Assembly: GCA_030149525.1 (NCBI GenBank)
Contig: JASBRJ010000058.1
Span: 1-47,443, forward strand
DNA from: a bacterium
Lineage (GTDB): Bacteria > Vulcanimicrobiota > Xenobia > Xenobiales > JADMJV01
DNA length: 47,443 bases
Direction of reading: 5' to 3'
Shown here: positions 8,067 through 19,765 of the stretch, piece by piece
Numbering within the stretch: the stretch's first letter is position 1
Layout of the letters: the number at the start of each line of letters is the position of its first letter
Position numbers and translations under genes: made by a program
The notes under the pieces: model-generated
What the model was told of the DNA's origin: nothing
The model's input: the letters and a program-made list of their open reading frames with translations, nothing else
Databases searched by the model: none

Positions 8067-11000
8067 ATGGGATTCGTGAGCACTGCTTGTTGGAAAATGA
8101 AGAGAATAGGATTGACGCTTGGAATCGGCGTCTTATTGTCGGGGACTGCTGTCTCCAACCCGAACGGCCCCCAAGTCCGCCACGGACAAGTCAATTATAG
8201 TCCTGGCTCCCAGGCTCAAATTCAGCAACTCACCGATAAGGCGATCGTCGACTGGCAGTCTTTTTCTATAGGAGCGTCCGAATCCTTACGGATTCTTCAA
8301 CCAGGTCAACTGTCCGTGCTTCTCAATCGAGTTACCGGGGGCGATCCTTCACTCATTCTCGGCAGCCTAACTGCCAACGGCCAGGTCTTTCTCATCAATC
8401 CCGGCGGAATTCTTTTCGGGCCGAATTCTTCGGTCAATGTGGGTGGGTTGGTCGCTTCCACCCTAAACATCACGGATCAAGACTTTCTAGCCGGCAAGTA
8501 CGACTTCTCCGCCGTCTCAGGTCAAGACCTGGCCGCTGTCGTCAACCAGGGAAGAATTGAGATAACCAACGGAGGCTATGCTGTCCTGATAGGCCCCACC
8601 GTCCTGAACGAAGGCACCATTATCGCCCGTGCGGGGAACGTGGTTCTGGCCGGAGGTGAGCAAGCCACCCTAAACCTCGACGGCCAAGACCTCGTTCACT
8701 ACGCCCTCAAAGAGAAAGTGGGAGAGGGTACGGTTCTTTTGGCGCCGGGCATGTTAAGCGACACAATGGCCGATATCTTTGGAGTGAATCCTTCCTTACG
8801 AGCCGACTCCCTGGTCCGACTCCCGGACGGCTCCGTCAAAATGCTCCGCTCCTCGGGCACCGCCGTGCAGGCCGGGACCGTGAATGTCGATGGTACCGAC
8901 GGCCAGAAAGCCGGCTCGATTGCCCTGGATTCTACCGATGTCACGATTGTAGGACGGGATTCGGTGACCACGGCGTCAGGTCATGGCAAACTCAGCAGCG
9001 GGGGAGAAATCCTGGTGCTCTCCTCTATGGACGGATTGGAAACCTCGCGAGGATTTACCGACGTTCAGTCCGGGGCTCTTCTGTCTGTGGCCGGTGGGCA
9101 GTCAGGCGACGGCGGATTCGTGGAGGTGAGCGGAGACGGAGTCAATCTCCTGGGCGAGGTCGATCTGTCGGCAACCGACGGCGCGGTCGGAACCTTCTTA
9201 CTCGACCCGGTGGTGGTAACCATCGTGGATGGGAACAACGCTCCCACCAGCAACCCTGCAACCGCCAACACGACGATCGGTGACCAGTGGTTCAGCACCC
9301 TGACCGGTGACCTCGTCCTTCAGAGCACTGGAGATATCATCTTCGATGCCTCTGCCCCCGGCGGAGTGGCAGGCGACGGTCAGAACGTAGTGGCTTTCGG
9401 CAACGACCTGACCCTTCAAGCAGGAAATGACGGACTCAACGGCCCCGGCGTCATCGAATTCAAGAATGACGGATGGCGTATAACCGGAAACGGAGGGAAC
9501 GCCCTGGACAATCTCAGGATAATCGCACCGGGCAACATTTCCCTTGGAGACGCGACCCTTGAGATGGGCGACAGCTTTTTTGTGCTGGATTCCGAGGCCG
9601 CCATCGACATGGGCACAGCGACTGTGACCATGGCACCTATTTCGAACGTCAATGCGTTGGTCTTAGAATCGGTCGGACTGCTCAACATGAACGCCTCGAA
9701 CATCGTTGTCAACGGAACGGGTGGCGGAGGCAACAAAGGTCTCAGAATAACCTCAAGCGCCGGAGACATTGAGCTGGGAAGCTCCGTCCTGAACTATAAC
9801 GACAGGCTCACCAACTCAGGCTCAAAAGAAAGTCGAATCAGTGCGGCCGGAGACATTCGCGCAAGTGGGACCCCGGACTGGTCTATTCTGGGCCGGGCGG
9901 ATATCGCGGCGGGCGGAAGCATCAACCTCCCCAACTTTGCCTTCGATAACCCACGCGATAGTGGAACCTCGACCAATTTTCGAACAACGACCGGAAGCAT
10001 CACGCTCGGCAACGGAGGCATCAACAACGGGCTGGATCTGACCGCCGTCACCACCCTGGATATCGTCCTGGAGTCGGCAGGAGGGGTGACCCTGAACAAC
10101 TTCGATATTAAGGTCAACGACCGATCCGATGTGAGCGTGACCGCAGTCGGCGACATCAACTTTTCGAACGTCAAGATCAACGAAGGTGCTCTGAACAACT
10201 CCACCGGCTTCGTGAGGCTCGACTCCACCGGGGGAGCCCTGAACCTGGGGAACTCGACCATCAGGGTAGAGCCGGTCAGTGAGTTCAACTCCCTGTTTCT
10301 TCAATCGGCAGGCACCTTAGATTTCGGGAGTTCAGACATCCGAGTGAATGGAGGCGGGGGCGGTTTTAACAAAGGGCTCAGGATAGCGTCCATCGGCTCC
10401 GACATTGACCTGGGCACCTCCAGCTTGTTCTTCAACGACGTGGTGACCTCGTCCGGCTCCTTGCTCAACCAAGTAACGGCCGCAGGCGACATTCGCTCGT
10501 CGGGAGCGGCCAACTGGCACATCGGCGGAACGACCACTTTCTCCGCTACAGGAAGTCTCGATCTCCCCAATTTCTCCTTGGACAACCCCGTGGCCGGCGG
10601 CTCATTTCAAAACTCCACCCGCCTTCAGGCCACCAACGGCAGCATCAATCTCGGCAACGGCGGCATCAACACCGGGCTAGATCTCACCACCTCCAACGCT
10701 TTGGACATTATTCTTGAGTCCGGCGATCAGGTCACGCTGAACAATTTCGATATGAAGGTCAACAACCGCAAGGATGTCAACATCACCGCAGCCGGTGACA
10801 TCCGCCTCACCGACGTGAACGTCAACGAGGGGGCGCTGGACAACTCCACCGGTGTGGTGAGCTTCAACTCCACCGGCGGAGCCCTGAACCTGGGGAATTC
10901 CACCATCAGGGTGGAGCCGGTCAGTGAGTTCAACTCCCTTTTCCTTCAATCGTCCGGCACCTTGGATCTGGGCAGCTCCGACATCCGAGTCGACGGAGTC

Positions 11001-14000
11001 GGTGGGGGCTTTAATAAGGGCCTCAGAATCGTCTCCACCACCTCGGACATCGACCTGGGCACCTCCAGCTTGTTTTTCAACGACGTGGTGACCTCGTCCG
11101 GCTCCTTGCTCAACCAGATTACGGCGTCGGGTAACATACGCTCTTCCGGGGCGGTGGACTGGCACATCGGCGGAACGACCACTTTCTCCGCCACAGGAAG
11201 CCTTGACCTCCCCGATTTCTCCTTCGACAACCCCGTGGCCGGCGGCTCCTTTCAAAACTCCACCCGCTTTCAGACCACCAACGGCAGCATCAATCTCGGC
11301 AACGGCGGCATCAACACCGGGTTGGACCTGACCACTGCCGACGCCCTGGATATCATCCTTGAGTCCGGCGACCAGGTGACACTGAATAATTTCGATATGA
11401 AGGTCAACAACCGAAAGGATGTCAACATCACCGCAGCCGGCGACATCCGCCTCACCGACGTCAACATCAACGAGGGGGCGCTGGACAACTCCACCGGTGT
11501 GGTGAGCTTCAACTCCACCGGCGGAGCCCTGAACCTGGGGAATTCCACCATCAGGGTGGAGCCGGTCAGTGAAAATATTGCTCTCTCTCTTCAATCGTCC
11601 GGAACCTTGGATCTAGGCAGCTCCGACATCCGAGTCGACGGAGTCGGAGGCAGCTTCAATAAAGGGCTCAGAATCGTTTCCACCGGCTCAGACGTTGACC
11701 TGGGGAGTTCTCAACTCGTCTTCAATGACGTGGTCACCTCCTCGGGCTCCTCTCTCAACCAGATAACAGCAGCCGGGGATATCCTCACAACCGGGGTCGC
11801 CGATTGGCAGGTTGGCGGCAGGGTCGACTTTGTGGCCAATGGGGCTATCGATCTCGACGGTTTCTCCCTGGACAACCCTTATGTAGGTGGAACAGGTAAC
11901 GGTCCCAGCAGATTCAGGGCTACCAACGGAGGCCTCAGCCTGAAAAACGGTGGCATCAACACCGGTCTCGACTTCACTACCGTGAACACCTTGGGCCTCA
12001 TCTTCGAATCGGGCGGAGTCACCAATCTCTCGGAATTCGACATCAATGTCGACAACGGCAACACCATCTCGCTCACTTCAGCCGGGAACGTCAGCATGAA
12101 CGGGGCGGATATCAATAGAAACTCTCCACCAGGCGGTGCCGGAGATATCAGCGTGTTTTCCGAAGCGGCTCTCAGTCTGGGTACGGGAACTCTCCGCTCC
12201 GACCGAGACATCGACCTCAAGGCGAGCGGAGTGCTCGATCTGGGAACCAAGGAGCTTTTCACTCCCCAGGTTCTGTTTCTATCTTCCAACACGGAAGTAC
12301 GGAGCAGTTCTAGTCATTTTCAGGCCCGAGACATCGAAATCTTCGGATTCAACCCGTCGACCAATGTGCGCGATCCTAACCGCGCGATTCCCAACGGAGT
12401 GGGGATCGGTTTGGCCACCCAAAACACCTCCGACACTATCGACCTAACCATCTTTAGCGACTCCGACATTGAAGTCATTCACAGTGGAAACGGGACACTC
12501 AACCTCGTGACAGCGGGTGGACCGCAGGCCATCCGTTCCACCGGCGGCGGAGTAAACATCGACGCAGGCAACGGAACCGTTCGCTTGAACAGTGCGGGCT
12601 CGGGGTTCGCCACAGTGCATGCGGACTCCGATGCGGTGGTTCAGGTCAAAGCGGCGCAGATCGTGGAGGCGAACGGTGGCAACCTCGATCTCTTTTCGGG
12701 GGGCGAGGTGATCGTCGGAGCAACCGTGTCAGCGGGGACGGCAGGCTCCGAACTGGAAGTCCAGGGTCGGAGTATCACCCTCGATCTCTCTCAGGCCGGT
12801 GGAGCGCAAGGTGCCCTTCGGATCATAGGGCCTAATGAGTTTCTCAAAGCCATCGGCAACAACTCAACAATATCCATCACCGACACCAATACAACCAACA
12901 GACTGAGTGTGGTGGACGATGCCGGGCGAGGCAGTCTCGATCTGGGTGAGCTCACCGCAACCGATATTCACTACGTCGACATGAACGGCGTGAAGATCAA
13001 CAGTGTCGTTCCCGGAAACGGAAAGACGCTTGCCATCGAAGTCCTGAACAACGGTGATATTATTGGCGGGGCAACCGTAGGCGCGGATCTCGATTTCGAT
13101 GGAAACCTGCTTCTCAAAGCCGACGGCGACATCGGCACCCAAGCGGCCCCTATTCGAGTGGAAGCCGGGACCGTCTCGGTTCAGGCCGGTTCGGATTCGG
13201 GGGACGAGATTCATCTCTCCAGTCGAAGTGATGCTTTGGTGATTGCGGATGTCCAACTGCAGAATCATCGTAATGAAGTTGTGGCTCAAGGCCAAGGAGT
13301 TCGCGGAGGCGGTGATATCGAAATCCGCATGGAGGGAACGAGTCAAGCTCTCCTGGATCAGCGAAGTACTCTTCAATCCACCAACGGGAGTGTGGGGATT
13401 TCTTTGCAAAACGGGAGCATTTCCCAACAGGCCGGAAGCACCATTGCGGCCGGGAACACGGTGGCCTTCAGCCTGCCCGGTGACGTGGGCACCTTCGATT
13501 CCGGAACCGCCTCGGAAGTCTCCATCCAAGCTTCTTCAGTCGTTCTGGACGTCGGCGGAGACGCCATTCTGCAGCAGGCGTCGGGCGATTTGACCGTGGA
13601 GTCTCAAGCCGTTGTGGGAGGCACCACATACACCGCCTCTGCCAACGGTCAGGACCGGCGCATACGGGTGGCAAACGGTTCTCTCACAGTGAATTCGGAT
13701 ATCACCGCCACCGGTGAGACTGCGCTTGTGACCGGCACCGGCTCCGTTCTTTCTCAGGGAACCGGGGGCGGGAATATTGTTTTGAACGGCAACGTCACAT
13801 CGGGAACCAGTCTGGTCGTTCTGGCTGGAGGTGATGTGACTCAACAATCGGGCAACCTGGTAGCCCCACAACTCGGTTTAGGAAGTGTGACCGGAACGAT
13901 CGGTTCGAACGCCGATCCAATCAATATTCAAACCGACCAGCTGGCCATCAACCCGCTGGCTGGTTCTGTGGCCGATCCGAACGGCTTTGTGAACGTTGCT

Positions 14001-14333
14001 CAGGTTGGGGCTGTGGGAGTGACCGTCCAACAAGGAGCGCCCTTGCCCGATCCACCGCCAACGCCCCAGCCTCCAACTCCCGGACCGCCTCCAACTCCCA
14101 CACCCGAGCCGGGAGAGATCCTAAGCCCCGGCAATTCAGTAGGCTTCGACAACCTTCCTGAACTGGGAGTGAACGAGAGTCCGGTTCTTGCTCAAAACAA
14201 CACTCAACTCATCGATGAGGCGTTGCAAATACTCCTGGAACTCGATGTCGCGACCGTGGTAGAGGTGGACCCAACCATTCCGCCCATCCAGATCACCGAC
14301 GAGGACTATCTTCAGAAAAAGTTTCGACGTTAA
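8067..14333 (+). CDS. Giant FHA-like two-partner-secretion exoprotein with tandem repeats
   Basis: A 2,088-residue predicted exported beta-helix protein. A signal peptide is visible (KRIGLTLGIGVLLSGTAVS). The start may be ATG 8067 (GAAAGG eight bases upstream) or ATG 8097 (MKRIG). Residues about 31-160 are a haemagglutination-activity/TPS domain, with NRVTGGDPS near 88 and VFLINPGGILFGPNSS and VNVGGLVAST near 108-133. Such domains guide export through a TpsB outer-membrane pore. The rest is Gly/Ser/Asn/Asp-rich repeats with almost no Cys, including four long tandem units (9606-12173). Residues about 1,990-2,015 are Pro-rich, followed by a short acidic tail ending KKFRR. No TpsB gene is in the window. 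A role as a surface adhesin is likely from the family but unproven. Confidence 0.88.
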   Translation: MGFVSTACWKMKRIGLTLGIGVLLSGTAVSNPNGPQVRHGQVNYSPGSQAQIQQLTDKAIVDWQSFSIGASESLRILQPGQLSVLLNRVTGGDPSLILGSLTANGQVFLINPGGILFGPNSSVNVGGLVASTLNITDQDFLAGKYDFSAVSGQDLAAVVNQGRIEITNGGYAVLIGPTVLNEGTIIARAGNVVLAGGEQATLNLDGQDLVHYALKEKVGEGTVLLAPGMLSDTMADIFGVNPSLRADSLVRLPDGSVKMLRSSGTAVQAGTVNVDGTDGQKAGSIALDSTDVTIVGRDSVTTASGHGKLSSGGEILVLSSMDGLETSRGFTDVQSGALLSVAGGQSGDGGFVEVSGDGVNLLGEVDLSATDGAVGTFLLDPVVVTIVDGNNAPTSNPATANTTIGDQWFSTLTGDLVLQSTGDIIFDASAPGGVAGDGQNVVAFGNDLTLQAGNDGLNGPGVIEFKNDGWRITGNGGNALDNLRIIAPGNISLGDATLEMGDSFFVLDSEAAIDMGTATVTMAPISNVNALVLESVGLLNMNASNIVVNGTGGGGNKGLRITSSAGDIELGSSVLNYNDRLTNSGSKESRISAAGDIRASGTPDWSILGRADIAAGGSINLPNFAFDNPRDSGTSTNFRTTTGSITLGNGGINNGLDLTAVTTLDIVLESAGGVTLNNFDIKVNDRSDVSVTAVGDINFSNVKINEGALNNSTGFVRLDSTGGALNLGNSTIRVEPVSEFNSLFLQSAGTLDFGSSDIRVNGGGGGFNKGLRIASIGSDIDLGTSSLFFNDVVTSSGSLLNQVTAAGDIRSSGAANWHIGGTTTFSATGSLDLPNFSLDNPVAGGSFQNSTRLQATNGSINLGNGGINTGLDLTTSNALDIILESGDQVTLNNFDMKVNNRKDVNITAAGDIRLTDVNVNEGALDNSTGVVSFNSTGGALNLGNSTIRVEPVSEFNSLFLQSSGTLDLGSSDIRVDGVGGGFNKGLRIVSTTSDIDLGTSSLFFNDVVTSSGSLLNQITASGNIRSSGAVDWHIGGTTTFSATGSLDLPDFSFDNPVAGGSFQNSTRFQTTNGSINLGNGGINTGLDLTTADALDIILESGDQVTLNNFDMKVNNRKDVNITAAGDIRLTDVNINEGALDNSTGVVSFNSTGGALNLGNSTIRVEPVSENIALSLQSSGTLDLGSSDIRVDGVGGSFNKGLRIVSTGSDVDLGSSQLVFNDVVTSSGSSLNQITAAGDILTTGVADWQVGGRVDFVANGAIDLDGFSLDNPYVGGTGNGPSRFRATNGGLSLKNGGINTGLDFTTVNTLGLIFESGGVTNLSEFDINVDNGNTISLTSAGNVSMNGADINRNSPPGGAGDISVFSEAALSLGTGTLRSDRDIDLKASGVLDLGTKELFTPQVLFLSSNTEVRSSSSHFQARDIEIFGFNPSTNVRDPNRAIPNGVGIGLATQNTSDTIDLTIFSDSDIEVIHSGNGTLNLVTAGGPQAIRSTGGGVNIDAGNGTVRLNSAGSGFATVHADSDAVVQVKAAQIVEANGGNLDLFSGGEVIVGATVSAGTAGSELEVQGRSITLDLSQAGGAQGALRIIGPNEFLKAIGNNSTISITDTNTTNRLSVVDDAGRGSLDLGELTATDIHYVDMNGVKINSVVPGNGKTLAIEVLNNGDIIGGATVGADLDFDGNLLLKADGDIGTQAAPIRVEAGTVSVQAGSDSGDEIHLSSRSDALVIADVQLQNHRNEVVAQGQGVRGGGDIEIRMEGTSQALLDQRSTLQSTNGSVGISLQNGSISQQAGSTIAAGNTVAFSLPGDVGTFDSGTASEVSIQASSVVLDVGGDAILQQASGDLTVESQAVVGGTTYTASANGQDRRIRVANGSLTVNSDITATGETALVTGTGSVLSQGTGGGNIVLNGNVTSGTSLVVLAGGDVTQQSGNLVAPQLGLGSVTGTIGSNADPINIQTDQLAINPLAGSVADPNGFVNVAQVGAVGVTVQQGAPLPDPPPTPQPPTPGPPPTPTPEPGEILSPGNSVGFDNLPELGVNESPVLAQNNTQLIDEALQILLELDVATVVEVDPTIPPIQITDEDYLQKKFRR
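9606..10241 (+). repeat. Tandem repeat unit 1 of the exoprotein (212 codons, diverged)
   Basis: Begins at the D-M-G-T-A-T-V-T-M-A-P version of the unit and runs to the next N-L-G-N-S-T-I. It shares GGGNKGLRI, NLPNF, LGNGGIN and LNNFDIKVN with units 2-4 but has diverged most. Confidence 0.8.
10242..10886 (+). repeat. Tandem repeat unit 2 (645 bp, 215 codons)
   Basis: Starts NLGNSTIRVEPVSEFNS and contains GSSDIRVNG, NKGLRI, FFNDVVTSSGS, WHIGGTTTFSATGSLDLP, LGNGGINTGLDL, LNNFDMKVNNRKDVNITA and NEGALDNSTG. It lies in phase with the reading frame and is nearly identical to unit 3 over long stretches of DNA. Confidence 0.92.
10887..11531 (+). repeat. Tandem repeat unit 3 (645 bp, 215 codons)
   Basis: Same motifs and exactly the same length as unit 2. 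Most differences are synonymous or conservative, which suggests recent duplication or continuing gene conversion. Confidence 0.92.
11532..12173 (+). repeat. Tandem repeat unit 4 (642 bp, 214 codons)
   Basis: Begins NLGNSTIRVEPVSEN. The first quarter is close to unit 3 and the remainder is diverged (WQVGGRVDF, LKNGGINTGLDF). The array ends at LGTGTLRSD. Confidence 0.85.
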
Positions 14334-15105: not shown

Positions 15106-15852
15106 ATGAACAACAAGACTTTCTTTCTCGTGGCCCTCCTCTTGCTGAGCTTGGTTCTCCCGGCACCGGCACAATCAGCCTGCTTTATCTGCGGCTCGCA
15201 AAAATCGCTTCGAAGAATTCAGGTCGAAAAGCAAAACAAACTGATCTGTCACGACTGTCGAAACCAAGAGCAGAGATGCGATCTTTGCCGTCGAGCCTGC
15301 ACCCCGGAATACATGAGAGACGGTCGTCGCATCTGCCCCACCTGCAAAAACACCCGCATCCTGACTCAGGAACAGCTAGACGGTCTTTACGACAACGTGA
15401 AAAGCTTTCTCTCCCGAGACCCAGCGGGAGTAGTGGTCAACTTCACGCTCCCGGTCCAACTTGCCGACAAAGACGAGATTCAAACAAAGATGATTGAGGG
15501 CGGTCGTGCCATGGCCGTCCTGGGCTTCTACAGCCCTTACAATCCCGAGAAAATCTACATCCTCAGCGGGCAAACCGAGATCGATTCCGGGGCCACCATG
15601 GTTCATGAGTACACTCACGCCTGGCAGAGCCGCAATTGCCCCAGCCAGGACCGTGCCCTCAAGGAAGGCTTTGCTTCTTACATGGAATACCGCTATCTCG
15701 TTTCCAGAGGCCAGAAAAACAAAGCCATGAGTCTGACCAGAAAGAACGATCCCGACTACGGTGAGAGCCTGGCGAAACTTCTGGAAATGGAGAAAAAAGT
15801 GGGCGTTGCCGGGGTGGTGAAATACGCAACCACTCAGAAAGCCCTGCCTTAG
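15106..15852 (+). CDS. Exported DA1-like protein: LIM-type zinc domain plus HExxH peptidase
   Basis: A 248-residue protein with a Sec signal peptide (MNNKTFFLVALLLLSLVLPAPAQSA). Residues 26-86 carry a run of CxxC, HxxC and CxxC zinc ligands (CFICG, CHDC, CDLC, CPTC) arranged like the last LIM-like module of plant DA1. A linker with LDGLYDNVKSFL follows, then H167-E-Y-T-H171 and, 15 residues on, E187 in LKEGFASYMEY. This is a gluzincin-type metallopeptidase site, matching the DA1 signature HEMMHAW...EEG. Plant DA1 proteins are ubiquitin-activated peptidases; bacterial versions are known as a family but their substrates are not. The signal peptide predicts work outside the cytoplasm. The ribosome site is weak. 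The downstream convergent gene overlaps the stop by four bases. Confidence 0.85.
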   Translation: MNNKTFFLVALLLLSLVLPAPAQSACFICGSQKSLRRIQVEKQNKLICHDCRNQEQRCDLCRRACTPEYMRDGRRICPTCKNTRILTQEQLDGLYDNVKSFLSRDPAGVVVNFTLPVQLADKDEIQTKMIEGGRAMAVLGFYSPYNPEKIYILSGQTEIDSGATMVHEYTHAWQSRNCPSQDRALKEGFASYMEYRYLVSRGQKNKAMSLTRKNDPDYGESLAKLLEMEKKVGVAGVVKYATTQKALP

Positions 15853-16616
15853 CCCGGGAAAGGACAGTAGTAAACGTCGCCCCGTCGCAGGTTTCTCACT
15901 AGCAAAGGATGGGTTTCGGAGTCGGGCCAAAGCTCATTGATCCTTCGCAGACTTCCTTCAGGGTCGCCACACACTTCGGCTGAGGCGATTCTTGCCAGTG
16001 TCTTGAGATCGGCCTGGTGAGTTTCACCTAAAAACTGACTCAGAACCTGAGCCTTCACCGTGGAATGAACTCTCGCCAGGGCGGAGTAAGCCGCTTCAGA
16101 GTATCGAACCGTCGTGGCTGGAAGAAGAAACAGAAGTCGCACAACAGCTTCGAAGGTGAGAGACTTTAGAAAAATTCCCAACAGATGATGATCGAGAAGA
16201 GCGGTCAGATCGATAACGTCATGTTCTTCCAGAAGCTCATCTAGAACCCGGGCTACTCGGAGAGTCTCTTTGCTCGCCATTTCCGTCCACTCCTGGATCG
16301 GATCGGAGGTTTCGTCCCCGCCTAGAATGGCGACCACTTGAGAAATCCACTCCACGCGAACTTCCTCGTAATTGAAAGGAAGATTGCAGATCCCCAAAGT
16401 GATCATGGAGATACTCTCGGAATGCATATGCGAGAAAAGTCTGGCGGACAGGACAGGATCCAGAGCCATGAAGGCCACCGCCATCTTTTTCACGGCGGGC
16501 TCGGTAATCCAGTCTCTCTGAAGCTCAAAATACTCCGCGAGTGCGCTCCGCGTTGAGGTGTCTCCACCCATCACCAGATAAGCAGAAAAGTCCTGGGGCG
16601 ACGATTCAAATAGCAC
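15849..16616 (-). CDS. Hypothetical helical protein
   Basis: A 255-residue, all-helical, acidic protein starting at GTG with GGGAGGG five bases upstream, so the start is firm. It contains KKMAVAFMALDPVLSARLFSHM followed by SESISMITLGICNLP. This looks faintly like the N-terminal segment of FliG (KAAILLLxLGEDxAAEVLKHL...EV), and a second helical block (LLDHHLLGIFLKSLTFEAVV) could be a FliG- or HEAT-like repeat. The resemblance is too weak to name it, and no flagellar genes are nearby. It has no signal peptide and no membrane segment. A minus-strand TATAAT lies 25-30 bases before the start. Function unknown. Confidence 0.65.
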   Translation of the reverse strand: MLFESSPQDFSAYLVMGGDTSTRSALAEYFELQRDWITEPAVKKMAVAFMALDPVLSARLFSHMHSESISMITLGICNLPFNYEEVRVEWISQVVAILGGDETSDPIQEWTEMASKETLRVARVLDELLEEHDVIDLTALLDHHLLGIFLKSLTFEAVVRLLFLLPATTVRYSEAAYSALARVHSTVKAQVLSQFLGETHQADLKTLARIASAEVCGDPEGSLRRINELWPDSETHPLLVRNLRRGDVYYCPFPG

Positions 16617-17157: not shown

Positions 17158-18015
17158 CTACTCCAATCTGTCGGAGTGTTGTTTGGCGGCTTCGGCTAGA
17201 TCGAACGGCTGACCGCTCAGAAAGGGACAAGCCTGCTTGGCGGATCCCTTGGCCGGAGCAGCCTCCGAGGCTACGGCTTCTTTGGCCTCACCGATCTTGT
17301 CGTCCATAGAGAAATACTCGTTGACGGATTGGGCTACGGTTAGGAAATTGGTGCTGCCGGCTTTAGGAGGCTCCCAGCCTTCGGGCCACTTATTGTCTTT
17401 GAAGATCGTGGTGAAGTCTTTGTTGCTGATAAACTTGGTCCCGGTTCCATCGGTACGACCGAACACTTTCACCAGAAGGGCCAGTTCCGCCGCACCGAAG
17501 ATTTCCCCGTGACGGCCGGGCTCTTCTTCTAAATTGCTCTTTTGAAAACGACGAAGATCTTCCAAGGTGAGGCGCTCTCCATCGGAACTGAAACTGAGTG
17601 CTTTGTCGAGTCGCTCCTGGTTGAAACCGCCGCGCAAGATTTGCGTGTCGGCTTTGTGGTCGAGACTGCTTCCCTCAAGATCCTGAAGATTGTAGCTGTC
17701 TGCCCACAGCGCTTGCCAGTGGCTGCCGTCGGTGGAGAGACGCTTTGCAGCGTGATTGGCCACCTTGGTCAAACCCCAACCCGCACCGGCATACTCCTTG
17801 AGGACCTCGGGAAGGTTGGTGGCGTTGCCGTTCTCATCGACTTTGAGGACGCCTTCGTTGTAGGCTACCCGTTGAAAGGGGCAAATGATATCGTCGATGG
17901 TGAATTTACCATCTTCGGAGGGGGGAACGGGCTTCTGCTCTTGCTCCGTTCGGGGAAGAGAGTCCATGGCGTGAGCGGCCGGTGTGTAAGTGTTTAAGCG
18001 AGTTTGGATATTCAA
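17158..18015 (-). CDS. Heme-thiolate peroxidase/peroxygenase-like protein (tentative)
   Basis: A 285-residue protein starting at TTG with GAGGT six bases upstream. By eye it follows the plan of the chloroperoxidase/unspecific peroxygenase family. It has I-C45-P46-F, where those enzymes have the heme-ligand PCP, followed by an AYNEGVL turn, and YNLQDLEGSSLDHKAD, where they have the EHD motif. Next come RLTLEDLRRF and a C-terminal FTTIFKDNKWPEGWEPP, resembling their FFxxxRxPxGW segment. The EHD equivalent is LDH (119-121), so the acid/base residues may have changed. A second CPF occurs near the end (C263). The first 35 residues are polar and disordered without a signal peptide and begin MNIQT like another gene here. 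The ankyrin gene converges on it. Heme binding and activity are inferences. Confidence 0.55.
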   Translation of the reverse strand: MNIQTRLNTYTPAAHAMDSLPRTEQEQKPVPPSEDGKFTIDDIICPFQRVAYNEGVLKVDENGNATNLPEVLKEYAGAGWGLTKVANHAAKRLSTDGSHWQALWADSYNLQDLEGSSLDHKADTQILRGGFNQERLDKALSFSSDGERLTLEDLRRFQKSNLEEEPGRHGEIFGAAELALLVKVFGRTDGTGTKFISNKDFTTIFKDNKWPEGWEPPKAGSTNFLTVAQSVNEYFSMDDKIGEAKEAVASEAAPAKGSAKQACPFLSGQPFDLAEAAKQHSDRLE

Positions 18016-18108: not shown

Positions 18109-18990
18109 CTAAATAAACGGGTGGGCAATTCCTGAGGAAAAACAACGCAGAGGAGGACGGCTCTTAAACCATGAGTCCCAGGTCTGCTGCTCCACGTCGG
18201 CTGGTTTGACGGAAAGAGGCTTACCAGTGAGCCTCCCCCAGAAGCCTCGCTCGTCGTCACCTAACGTTCCTTGCCAGAGTAGGCCGCCTTCGTGGTCAAA
18301 AATCTTGAGTCGCGCTCCAACCTTCAGTCGATACATACCGGCTCGATCCCAGCCCGTCCGGTGGTTTCGACAAAACCTCTGGTCTTGAAAAATGAGCCAC
18401 GGTCGCTCCTCCATGCCTTGCTCCCAGAAATCGGAGAGAAAACCCCGCAACCGGTTATCGGGAGCCGCCGTCAAAGAATGAACGAACGGCCTCTCGATCA
18501 ACGTTTCCAACCGAGATCTCTCATCGGCGGTGGCAAGGAGGGCCACGTTAGGCATCCCCAGGACATCCAAACACTCGAACTGCTTGGCCCCCATGATGGC
18601 CCAATTGACCACCTGAAGAATTCTCATATCGAAGGCTTCCCCGGCGGCCGGTTCAAACAGGTAGCGATATTCGTGGCTGTGAAACGAAACCCGTCCGGCA
18701 GCCGCCTCAATCTGGCGAGGAAGGAAGAGCCCATGGGAAACAGCACTCAGCTCTTCCAAAAGCCGTCCATAACAGCCGGGACTCTCGATCAGATTGCTCT
18801 GACCATGCCACACTCTGCTTTTATCGAGGCAAAGAAGCATGACAAGGGCCTGGCTCCTGGTATCGCACTCGTAAGGAATGTCCACGCCCCAATAAGCTTG
18901 AGCGTTCTGCGCGCATTCCTCCCAAGAACGACCTTCCAAAAAACCCAGCGACTGCAGCCCTAACAGAAGGTCTGCAAGGCTCTCAGACAC
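18109..18990 (-). CDS. Hypothetical protein coupled to the HPr-kinase-like gene
   Basis: A 293-residue protein of no family I recognise. The GTG start lies inside the end of the upstream gene (8-nt overlap), so the two are almost certainly translated together. The N-terminal third is helical (SLADLLLGLQSLGFLEG). The middle has a Trp/His-rich part (RVSFHSHEYRYLFEP) and ILQVVNWAIMGAKQFECLDVLG, which might be a substrate pocket. The C-terminal part is beta-rich (GMYRLKVGARLKIFDHEGG) with many Trp and Phe. There is no signal peptide or membrane helix. HPr-kinase-like P-loop proteins in other bacteria often sit beside genes for peptide-modifying or surface-polymer enzymes, so a substrate or partner of the neighbour is a reasonable guess. 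Confidence 0.65.
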   Translation of the reverse strand: MSESLADLLLGLQSLGFLEGRSWEECAQNAQAYWGVDIPYECDTRSQALVMLLCLDKSRVWHGQSNLIESPGCYGRLLEELSAVSHGLFLPRQIEAAAGRVSFHSHEYRYLFEPAAGEAFDMRILQVVNWAIMGAKQFECLDVLGMPNVALLATADERSRLETLIERPFVHSLTAAPDNRLRGFLSDFWEQGMEERPWLIFQDQRFCRNHRTGWDRAGMYRLKVGARLKIFDHEGGLLWQGTLGDDERGFWGRLTGKPLSVKPADVEQQTWDSWFKSRPPLRCFSSGIAHPFI

Positions 18991-19765
18991 GGGTCGCGGT
19001 AGCCTTCATCCAGTCGAGAATCTGCTCCGCCGCCTCTTCCACCTCACCTCTCACAGACTCCACGCAAAAAGTTTTTTCTAGAGCCAGCGAGATGTAACCC
19101 AGCGCCCTGGCCGGTGCCGTCTGGGCACACACGGTATTCTCCAGCAGCTTAAGAACAGCTTGACCTCGGGTCAGAGAGACCGGGTTCCAGCTTCCCCCCT
19201 CTTCGAAATGGGCAACAACAACAAACTCAAGAGGGGAACTTCCCTGGGACGGAGACCATCCCAACTCCTCAGCCGGAGTAAACCGGATCTCTCCCCCAGG
19301 CATCCTCTCACTGAGGGCACGAGGGAAGGGATGCACCTGACCCATCTTATCCAGAACCGCGTACTCGTCTGAAAAGTAGACGGCACCCCGCTTTACCAGA
19401 GCTTTCACCAGGGTCGACTTGCCCGCAAAACTCCGCCCCGGCAAAGCCAGCAATCCATACTCCGTGAGAACAGCACCCGAGTGAACGAAGACCAGTCCGG
19501 GAGCGTGAGTGGCCAGGTCTATGTGGGAGTGGACTTTGAGATTGTGCCTCAGATAATCAAGACTGTCGACACGGCTCTTCAGTGCACCGTCTTGTTCAAC
19601 ATGGATATAGTCTTCCGAGCGGCGGAGAGTGAAAACAACCTCACCCGGTTCCTCCACTCGCGTCCAATTCGGCAGAATCACTCCCTTGACTGCGGCGGCG
19701 TGCTCTTCTTCTTCCCAGCGGAATTCCATACGATACCCGTAGGCTTCGTAAGTCTGCTTAAACAT
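18983..19765 (-). CDS. HPr-kinase-like P-loop protein
   Basis: A 260-residue cytosolic protein resembling the C-terminal half of HPr kinase/phosphorylase and its orphan relatives. A Walker A loop G110-RSFAGKS-T118 sits in LLALPGRSFAGKSTLVKALVKRGA, followed by a Walker B-like YFSDEYAVLD (130-139) and then HPFPRALSER, the usual layout of this fold. The N-terminal HprK sensor domain is absent and there is no HPr gene here, so the substrate is unlikely to be HPr. It overlaps the following unknown gene. Directly upstream of the ATG there is no ribosome site, but TATAAG lies only six bases away, so the message may be leaderless. The kinase fold is likely; the target is unknown. Confidence 0.75.
   Translation of the reverse strand: MFKQTYEAYGYRMEFRWEEEEHAAAVKGVILPNWTRVEEPGEVVFTLRRSEDYIHVEQDGALKSRVDSLDYLRHNLKVHSHIDLATHAPGLVFVHSGAVLTEYGLLALPGRSFAGKSTLVKALVKRGAVYFSDEYAVLDKMGQVHPFPRALSERMPGGEIRFTPAEELGWSPSQGSSPLEFVVVAHFEEGGSWNPVSLTRGQAVLKLLENTVCAQTAPARALGYISLALEKTFCVESVRGEVEEAAEQILDWMKATATRV

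What the first reader, a model, noticed from the sequence alone, without database searches (positions are those of the whole stretch)
17158..18015. Possible bacterial heme-thiolate peroxygenase relative with altered EHD site
Seen: ICPF (C45), YNLQDLEGSSLDHKAD and FTTIFKDNKWPEGWEPP, in the order and spacing of chloroperoxidase/unspecific peroxygenase motifs. Known: those enzymes are mainly fungal, secreted and use PCP and EHD. Here there is no signal peptide, the acid/base region reads LDH, and a second CPF lies near the end. If heme-bound it would be a new branch of a biocatalytically valued family.
Basis: inference. Interest (0 to 1): 0.65.

Follow-up and report, generated by a model that had tools for sequence, protein, structure and literature searches.

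The report
Bacterial heme-thiolate peroxygenase with caleosin ties
This gene encodes a likely cytoplasmic bacterial relative of the fungal heme-thiolate peroxygenases, a family only recently shown to exist in bacteria, and its small sequence family also resembles the plant peroxygenases called caleosins, hinting that the two enzyme groups share one origin.

Summary
The motifs are real; the gene lies on the minus strand (window 18015→17158, TTG start, 285 aa) and is under purifying selection. On its own it hits Pfam Peroxidase_2 only sub-threshold (17.7 bits, cut-off 26.9). Its template-free AlphaFold2 model, of low confidence (mean pLDDT 48), matches UPO/chloroperoxidase crystal structures and nothing else convincingly: the first 16 Foldseek rows, then VIA-align Z 8.7–11.8 against 5.0 for the next unrelated chain. 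Cys45, His120 and the acid/base Glu177 are invariant in six family members; the fungal Mg2+-site acids (EHD) are lost, as in the bacterial UPOs (BUPOs) published in June 2026 (PMC13394420). Best reading: a cytoplasmic H2O2-dependent heme-thiolate peroxygenase/peroxidase, a narrow Eremiobacterota branch. Unexpectedly, the family also aligns with caleosins (His-heme, EF-hand peroxygenases): profile P about 1e-5; a sister protein weakly matches both Pfams over one stretch; a caleosin occupies the sister gene's syntenic slot in a related genome; a caleosin-only model overlays UPOs over 161 of 186 residues. Common ancestry of caleosins and UPOs is the novel, unproven reading. Heme binding and activity are untested.

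The parts
17158..18015 (-). gene for the 285-aa peroxygenase-like protein (TTG start at 18015, stop ends at 17158)
   Evidence: ORF; 66% identical homologue L002; purifying selection; UPO/CPO fold match
17881..17883 (-). Cys45 codon, proposed proximal heme thiolate (I-C-P; P-C-P in sister subfamily B)
   Evidence: invariant in 6/6; aligns with the PCP cysteine of fungal UPOs in the joint alignments of family and UPOs
17656..17658 (-). His120 codon, proposed charge-stabilising partner (His of EHD)
   Evidence: invariant in 6/6; same column as the UPO EHD His and the caleosin KHGSD His when all three groups are aligned; without caleosins the aligner puts the UPO His 7-11 columns away
17485..17487 (-). 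Glu177 codon, proposed acid/base catalyst
   Evidence: invariant in 6/6; same column as the UPO/CPO acid/base Glu with or without caleosins
17659..17661 (-). Asp119 codon, in place of the Mg2+-site Glu of EHD (Lys121 stands in place of the Asp)
   Evidence: sequence; loss of this site is typical of bacterial UPOs (PMC13394420)
17800..17844 (-). EF-hand-like loop 1 (residues 58-72, KVDENGNATNLPEVL)
   Evidence: equivalent stretch hits EF-hand_6 in sister proteins, best 7.8e-4, sub-threshold
17416..17460 (-). EF-hand-like loop 2 (residues 186-200, GRTDGTGTKFISNKD)
   Evidence: equivalent stretch weakly hits EF-hand_1 and EF-hand_7 in L004
17161..17229 (-). conserved C-terminal tail CPFLSGQPFDLAEAAKQH... 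(C263-E285) after a divergent linker; function unknown, possibly a heme-sensing CP motif
   Evidence: conserved with L002; subfamily B has GCPFH at its N-terminus instead

Best explanation
The gene makes a soluble, cytoplasmic bacterial heme-thiolate peroxygenase/peroxidase with the chloroperoxidase/short-UPO fold. Proposed mechanism: Cys45 (ICP) ligates heme b from the proximal side; on the distal side Glu177, positioned by His120, shuttles the proton that breaks the O-O bond of H2O2 or a lipid hydroperoxide and gives compound I, which then inserts oxygen into, or takes electrons from, a small hydrophobic substrate. The Mg2+ site of fungal enzymes is missing; the fold is held without it, as in BUPOs, perhaps helped by EF-hand-like loops. 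Shown: ORF, selection, fold match, conservation of Cys/His/Glu, loss of EHD acids. Inferred: heme binding, Cys ligation, peroxide use, substrate, role of the loops and of the terminal CPF tail.
For: Foldseek against PDB: ranks 1-16 are all UPO/CPO (best 7zcl, E 4.8e-4, prob 1.00), then a drop to E 0.8. VIA-align: UPO/CPO Z 8.7-11.8 with 169-184 residues aligned, next unrelated chain Z 5.0. PF01328 hits in 5 of 6 members, best 2.1e-5, and in the window protein 0.0052 over residues 123-218. Invariant C45, P46, H120, E177. Profile comparison with fungal UPOs is colinear from PCP to the C-terminal GW, P 0.0018. Ten of 13 tested BUPOs, whose conserved Cys, Glu and basic partner match this set, gave active protein in E. 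coli, and three were purified and characterised (PMC13394420).
Against: The window protein misses Pfam's cut-off (17.7 against 26.9 bits) and its closest relative L002 gives no Pfam hit. The structure model is low confidence (mean pLDDT 48, residues 80-132 under 50). Only one proline flanks Cys45. Sequence-only support for the UPO link from small profiles varies with settings (P 0.0005-0.023). No heme, activity or expression data. Fungal UPOs are secreted; this is not.
Confidence: 0.72

Rival explanations
1. A caleosin-like peroxygenase: heme is held by histidine rather than by Cys45, calcium binds the EF-hand-like loops, and the conserved Cys has another role.
For: Family profile resembles caleosins more strongly than fungal UPOs (P 1.3e-5 against 0.0018); H120 and E177 sit in caleosin columns with nearly the same spacing (57 against 57-58); EF-hand hits. 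The BUPO study set aside two fold hits whose heme was predicted to be His-coordinated (PMC13394420).
Against: The ICP/PCP cysteine is invariant and aligns with the UPO ligand; the window protein has no PF05042 hit; structural matches are to UPO/CPO, Z up to 11.8.
Confidence: 0.13
2. A non-catalytic descendant: a UPO-fold, EF-hand-like calcium sensor or scaffold that no longer binds heme.
For: EHD acids lost; divergent sequence; EF-hand-like loops; small, patchy family.
Against: Cys, Pro, His and Glu of the active site are invariant while much else varies, and selection is strong.
Confidence: 0.1
3. Chance resemblance of a helical protein to UPO motifs.
For: Single-sequence Pfam hit is sub-threshold; solved-structure sequence searches found no UPO.
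Against: Sixteen top fold hits all from one superfamily, a clear Z gap, and family-level Pfam hits.
Confidence: 0.05

Closest known systems
Bacterial unspecific peroxygenases (BUPOs; AgeBUPO, KalBUPO, HydBUPO; PMC13394420)
   Same: Bacterial; fungal-UPO fold; proximal Cys in a PCP-type motif; distal Glu with basic partner; Mg2+-site residues absent; several lack signal peptides or have disordered N-termini.
   Different: From Eremiobacterota, which the paper's main text does not mention; window protein has ICP, not PCP; EF-hand-like loops and conserved terminal CPF tail. BUPO sequences were not at hand, so clade placement is untested.
Short (family I) fungal UPOs and Leptoxyphium chloroperoxidase (PF01328; 7zcl, 7o1r, 7zbp, 1cpo)
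   Same: Predicted fold; order Cys-Pro, His, Glu, then a C-terminal element ending in GW or similar.
   Different: About 12-21% identical in the structural alignments; no secretion signal; EHD reads DHK (MHT or MHN in the sister subfamily); His-Glu spacing 57 against 70-72; below the Pfam cut-off.
Caleosin/peroxygenases (PF05042, EC 1.11.2.3)
   Same: Colinear profile match; H120 and E177 columns with nearly identical spacing; calcium-loop-like element before the first long helix; caleosin-only model overlays UPOs over 161 residues.
   Different: The Eremiobacterota caleosins have no Cys at the ligand position; caleosins have a full EF-hand and two heme-associated histidines; the window protein itself does not hit PF05042.

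Membership tests
Heme-thiolate peroxidase (peroxidase-peroxygenase) superfamily | Chloroperoxidase-like helical fold | tested here: met
   Foldseek and VIA-align: UPO/CPO far ahead of all else; model confidence is low
Heme-thiolate peroxidase (peroxidase-peroxygenase) superfamily | Proximal Cys followed by Pro at the PCP position | tested here: met
   C45-P46 invariant and aligned with PCP
Heme-thiolate peroxidase (peroxidase-peroxygenase) superfamily | Distal acid/base Glu with basic partner | tested here: met
   E177 and H120 invariant; E177 aligns with the UPO Glu in every set, H120 with the UPO His only when caleosins are included
Heme-thiolate peroxidase (peroxidase-peroxygenase) superfamily | Thiolate-ligated heme b | not testable with these tools
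   needs spectroscopy or structure; no ligand modelling or coordinates available
Pfam PF01328 Peroxidase_2 | Score above the curated cut-off of 26.9 bits | tested here: not met
   17.7 bits; best family member 25.5-26.1 bits
Fungal UPO/CPO | Complete PCP | tested here: not met
   ICP in the window protein and L002; PCP in the four subfamily B proteins
Fungal UPO/CPO | EHD/EGD (Mg2+ site) | tested here: not met
   D119-H120-K121 in the window protein, MHT or MHN in subfamily B
Fungal UPO/CPO | Secretion signal | tested here: not met
   no hydrophobic N-terminal segment
Bacterial UPO (BUPO) | UPO fold, Cys, Glu plus His/Lys/Arg, Mg2+-site residues absent | tested here: met
   against the description in PMC13394420
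Bacterial UPO (BUPO) | Sequence placement in clades I-VI | not tested
   BUPO sequences and the supplement were not available
Bacterial UPO (BUPO) | H2O2-dependent peroxygenase activity | not testable with these tools
   needs assay
Caleosin (PF05042) | Score above the curated cut-off of 27 bits | tested here: not met
   no hit for the window protein; L005 14.4 bits
Caleosin (PF05042) | Canonical EF-hand | tested here: inconclusive
   sub-threshold EF-hand_6 hits in sisters; loop is irregular
Caleosin (PF05042) | Two invariant heme-associated histidines | tested here: not met
   only the KHGSD His has a clear counterpart, H120

The most novel reading that the evidence does not exclude
Caleosins (His-heme, EF-hand lipid peroxygenases of plants, fungi and some bacteria) and the Cys-heme UPO/chloroperoxidase superfamily descend from one ancestor, and this Eremiobacterota family is a living intermediate. 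It keeps the UPO cysteine together with caleosin-like His-Glu spacing and calcium-loop-like elements. A consequence is that one of the two 'heme-ligand' histidines of caleosins is really the distal partner of an unrecognised catalytic Glu.
Probability: 0.55. Interest if true: 0.78.

Novelty: new variant of a known kind. Interest (0 to 1): 0.58.

Why it matters
Bacterial UPOs are sought-after catalysts that express easily in E. coli, and this adds a compact, signal-free branch from an uncultured phylum. More broadly, if caleosins and UPOs are one superfamily, two peroxygenase classes studied apart (plant oxylipin biology and fungal biocatalysis) gain a shared fold and mechanism. How caleosins activate hydroperoxides then becomes directly testable by mutating the conserved Glu.

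Tried and rejected
Searching solved structures by sequence gave no UPO hit from the single protein or the family profile. NCBIfam gave none. Genome contigs with the single protein found nothing; with the profile only the same Eremiobacterota genomes. Viral contigs and plasmids gave no relatives. The weak hits L006 (stop inside) and L018 (a frame antisense to another long ORF) were rejected as chance. A direct caleosin-to-fungal-UPO profile match was not significant (P 0.05-0.1; reversed controls as good); the link needs the family or the fold. Foldseek with the caleosin model lists EF-hand proteins first and no UPO in the 50 rows shown; only VIA-align brings UPOs to the top, at Z 7.4-8.3, tied with EF-hand proteins that align just half as many residues. 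In one search my text pattern for the Glu picked a wrong residue in cal1 and fam5; those two entries are artefacts. Upstream DNA of the G137 caleosin gave no consistent similarity to that of subfamily B. An operon-based function was sought: neighbours show no metabolic theme. No sigma-70 promoter-like site was found.

Full report
OBSERVATION. The finding's coordinates are right but the gene is on the minus strand: 18015 to 17158, TTG start, 285 aa; the plus-strand reading has stops. A homologue with 66% identity exists in a related genome; pN is 0.27 against pS 0.80 for this pair, and dN/dS is near 0.11 among the sister genes, so the ORF is a gene under purifying selection. No hydrophobic N-terminal segment is seen, so a cytoplasmic location is inferred.

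DISTRIBUTION. The organism belongs to Candidatus Eremiobacterota, judged from the titles of the relatives' records. In 149 genomes of the phylum the family occurs only in the window's own taxonomic family. There are two subfamilies. A: the window protein and L002, with ICPF, SLDH and a conserved C-terminal CPFLSG tail. B: L003, L004, L005, L007, with a full PCP, a (S/E)LMH motif and an N-terminal GCPFH. C45, P46, H120 and E177 are invariant in all six. Searches of viral contigs and plasmids found nothing.

FAMILY. Pfam Peroxidase_2 (PF01328) is the only family hit by the window protein, sub-threshold at 17.7 bits. Five of six members hit it, best 2.1e-5 and up to 26.1 bits against a cut-off of 26.9. 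An AlphaFold2 model from six sequences without templates is low confidence (mean pLDDT 48). Yet Foldseek against all solved structures returns UPO or chloroperoxidase in ranks 1-16 and nothing else with E below 0.8. VIA-align gives Z 8.7-11.8 over residues 39-245 for the UPO/CPO chains and 5.0 for the next chain. A low-confidence model is a caution, but a chance model would hardly select one superfamily so cleanly.

ACTIVE SITE. In fungal short UPOs and CPO the motif set is PCP, EHD and a separate acid/base Glu (PMC6417270; HspUPO Cys39, His110, Glu180 in PMC13394420). The family keeps the Cys, the His and the separate Glu, and loses the Mg2+-binding acids. The published bacterial UPOs show this same pattern, and ICP-MS found negligible Mg in the three tested. 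So the altered EHD site is not an anomaly.

MECHANISM (inferred). Cys45 ligates heme; Glu177 with His120 breaks the peroxide; compound I oxidises a small hydrophobic substrate. Cytoplasmic location suggests detoxification or lipid-peroxide metabolism rather than extracellular attack. Neighbouring genes (metallopeptidase-like, FliG_N-like, ankyrin, two proteins without Pfam hits, glyoxalase, TPR protein) give no substrate hint.

CALEOSIN LINK. The profile search turned up a weak match in genome G137 that is in fact a caleosin (PF05042, 139 bits). It sits exactly where subfamily B sits in the sister genomes, between an M20-type peptidase (76-79% identical in the complete copies) and a channel-like protein (73%) (the names of these two neighbours are by eye). 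Two further Eremiobacterota caleosins were found. Sister protein L005 matches PF01328 over residues 68-236 and, weakly (E 0.037), PF05042 over residues 68-228. Profile comparison of the family with caleosins gives P 1.3e-5, with fungal UPOs 0.0018, caleosins with UPOs 0.1. Column-shuffled controls give z of 10.9, 8.8 and 3.3; restricted to the part after the first calcium loop, 6.1, 5.8 and -0.9. Reversed controls are clean for family-caleosin but not for caleosin-UPO. In joint alignments the UPO EHD His, caleosin KHGSD His and H120 share a column, as do the UPO acid/base Glu, the caleosin AEF Glu and E177; the caleosin-UPO pairing of both residues holds without the family in three alignment modes, but family plus UPO alone misplaces the His by 7-11 columns. 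His-Glu spacing is 57 in the family, 57-58 in caleosins and 70-72 in UPOs.

A model from three caleosins only has pLDDT 80. VIA-align pairs it with UPOs over 158-162 residues (3.6-3.9 Å, Z 7.9-8.3) and with CPO over 164 residues (Z 7.4), whereas EF-hand proteins of similar Z align only 66-81 residues. Z about 8 is modest for helical proteins, and Foldseek alone ranks EF-hand proteins first. No held paper contains both 'caleosin' and 'chloroperoxidase', and the one with 'caleosin' and 'unspecific peroxygenase' draws no such link in the passages read; most subscription journals and preprints were not searched. Bacterial caleosins were known in Sorangium (PMC5957377).

VERDICT. A real gene, most likely a bacterial heme-thiolate peroxygenase of BUPO type; a new variant of a recently known kind. 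The possible unification of caleosins with UPOs is the part that would surprise specialists; I rate it at a little better than even.

Noticed in passing
L026:1483-2043 (minus strand), genome G137: The caleosin at the syntenic slot begins ATG AAC ATC TAA: an in-frame stop at codon 4, then an open caleosin frame. The start MNI* recalls MxIQ of the window family, so this may be a recent nonsense change or an assembly error.
   Followed up: partly
L025, L026, L027: Clear caleosins (135-142 bits) in three Eremiobacterota genomes; G135 carries both a caleosin and a subfamily B peroxygenase.
   Followed up: yes
window 17161-17229; N-termini of L003, L004, L005, L007: A short CPF motif flanks the enzyme domain at the C-terminus in subfamily A and at the N-terminus in subfamily B; it resembles CP heme-regulatory motifs, from memory only.
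   Followed up: no
window 8067-14333: A 2088-aa protein with a filamentous-haemagglutinin-like N-terminus (by eye) and several long near-identical internal repeats.
   Followed up: no
window 15849-16616 (minus strand): A 255-aa protein with a weak FliG N-terminal domain hit (E 1.4e-4, sub-threshold); its surroundings were not checked for flagellar genes.
   Followed up: no
window 18983-19765 and 18109-18990 (minus strand): Overlapping gene pair just upstream of the peroxygenase gene with no Pfam hit; the first looks like an HprK-type kinase by eye.
   Followed up: no
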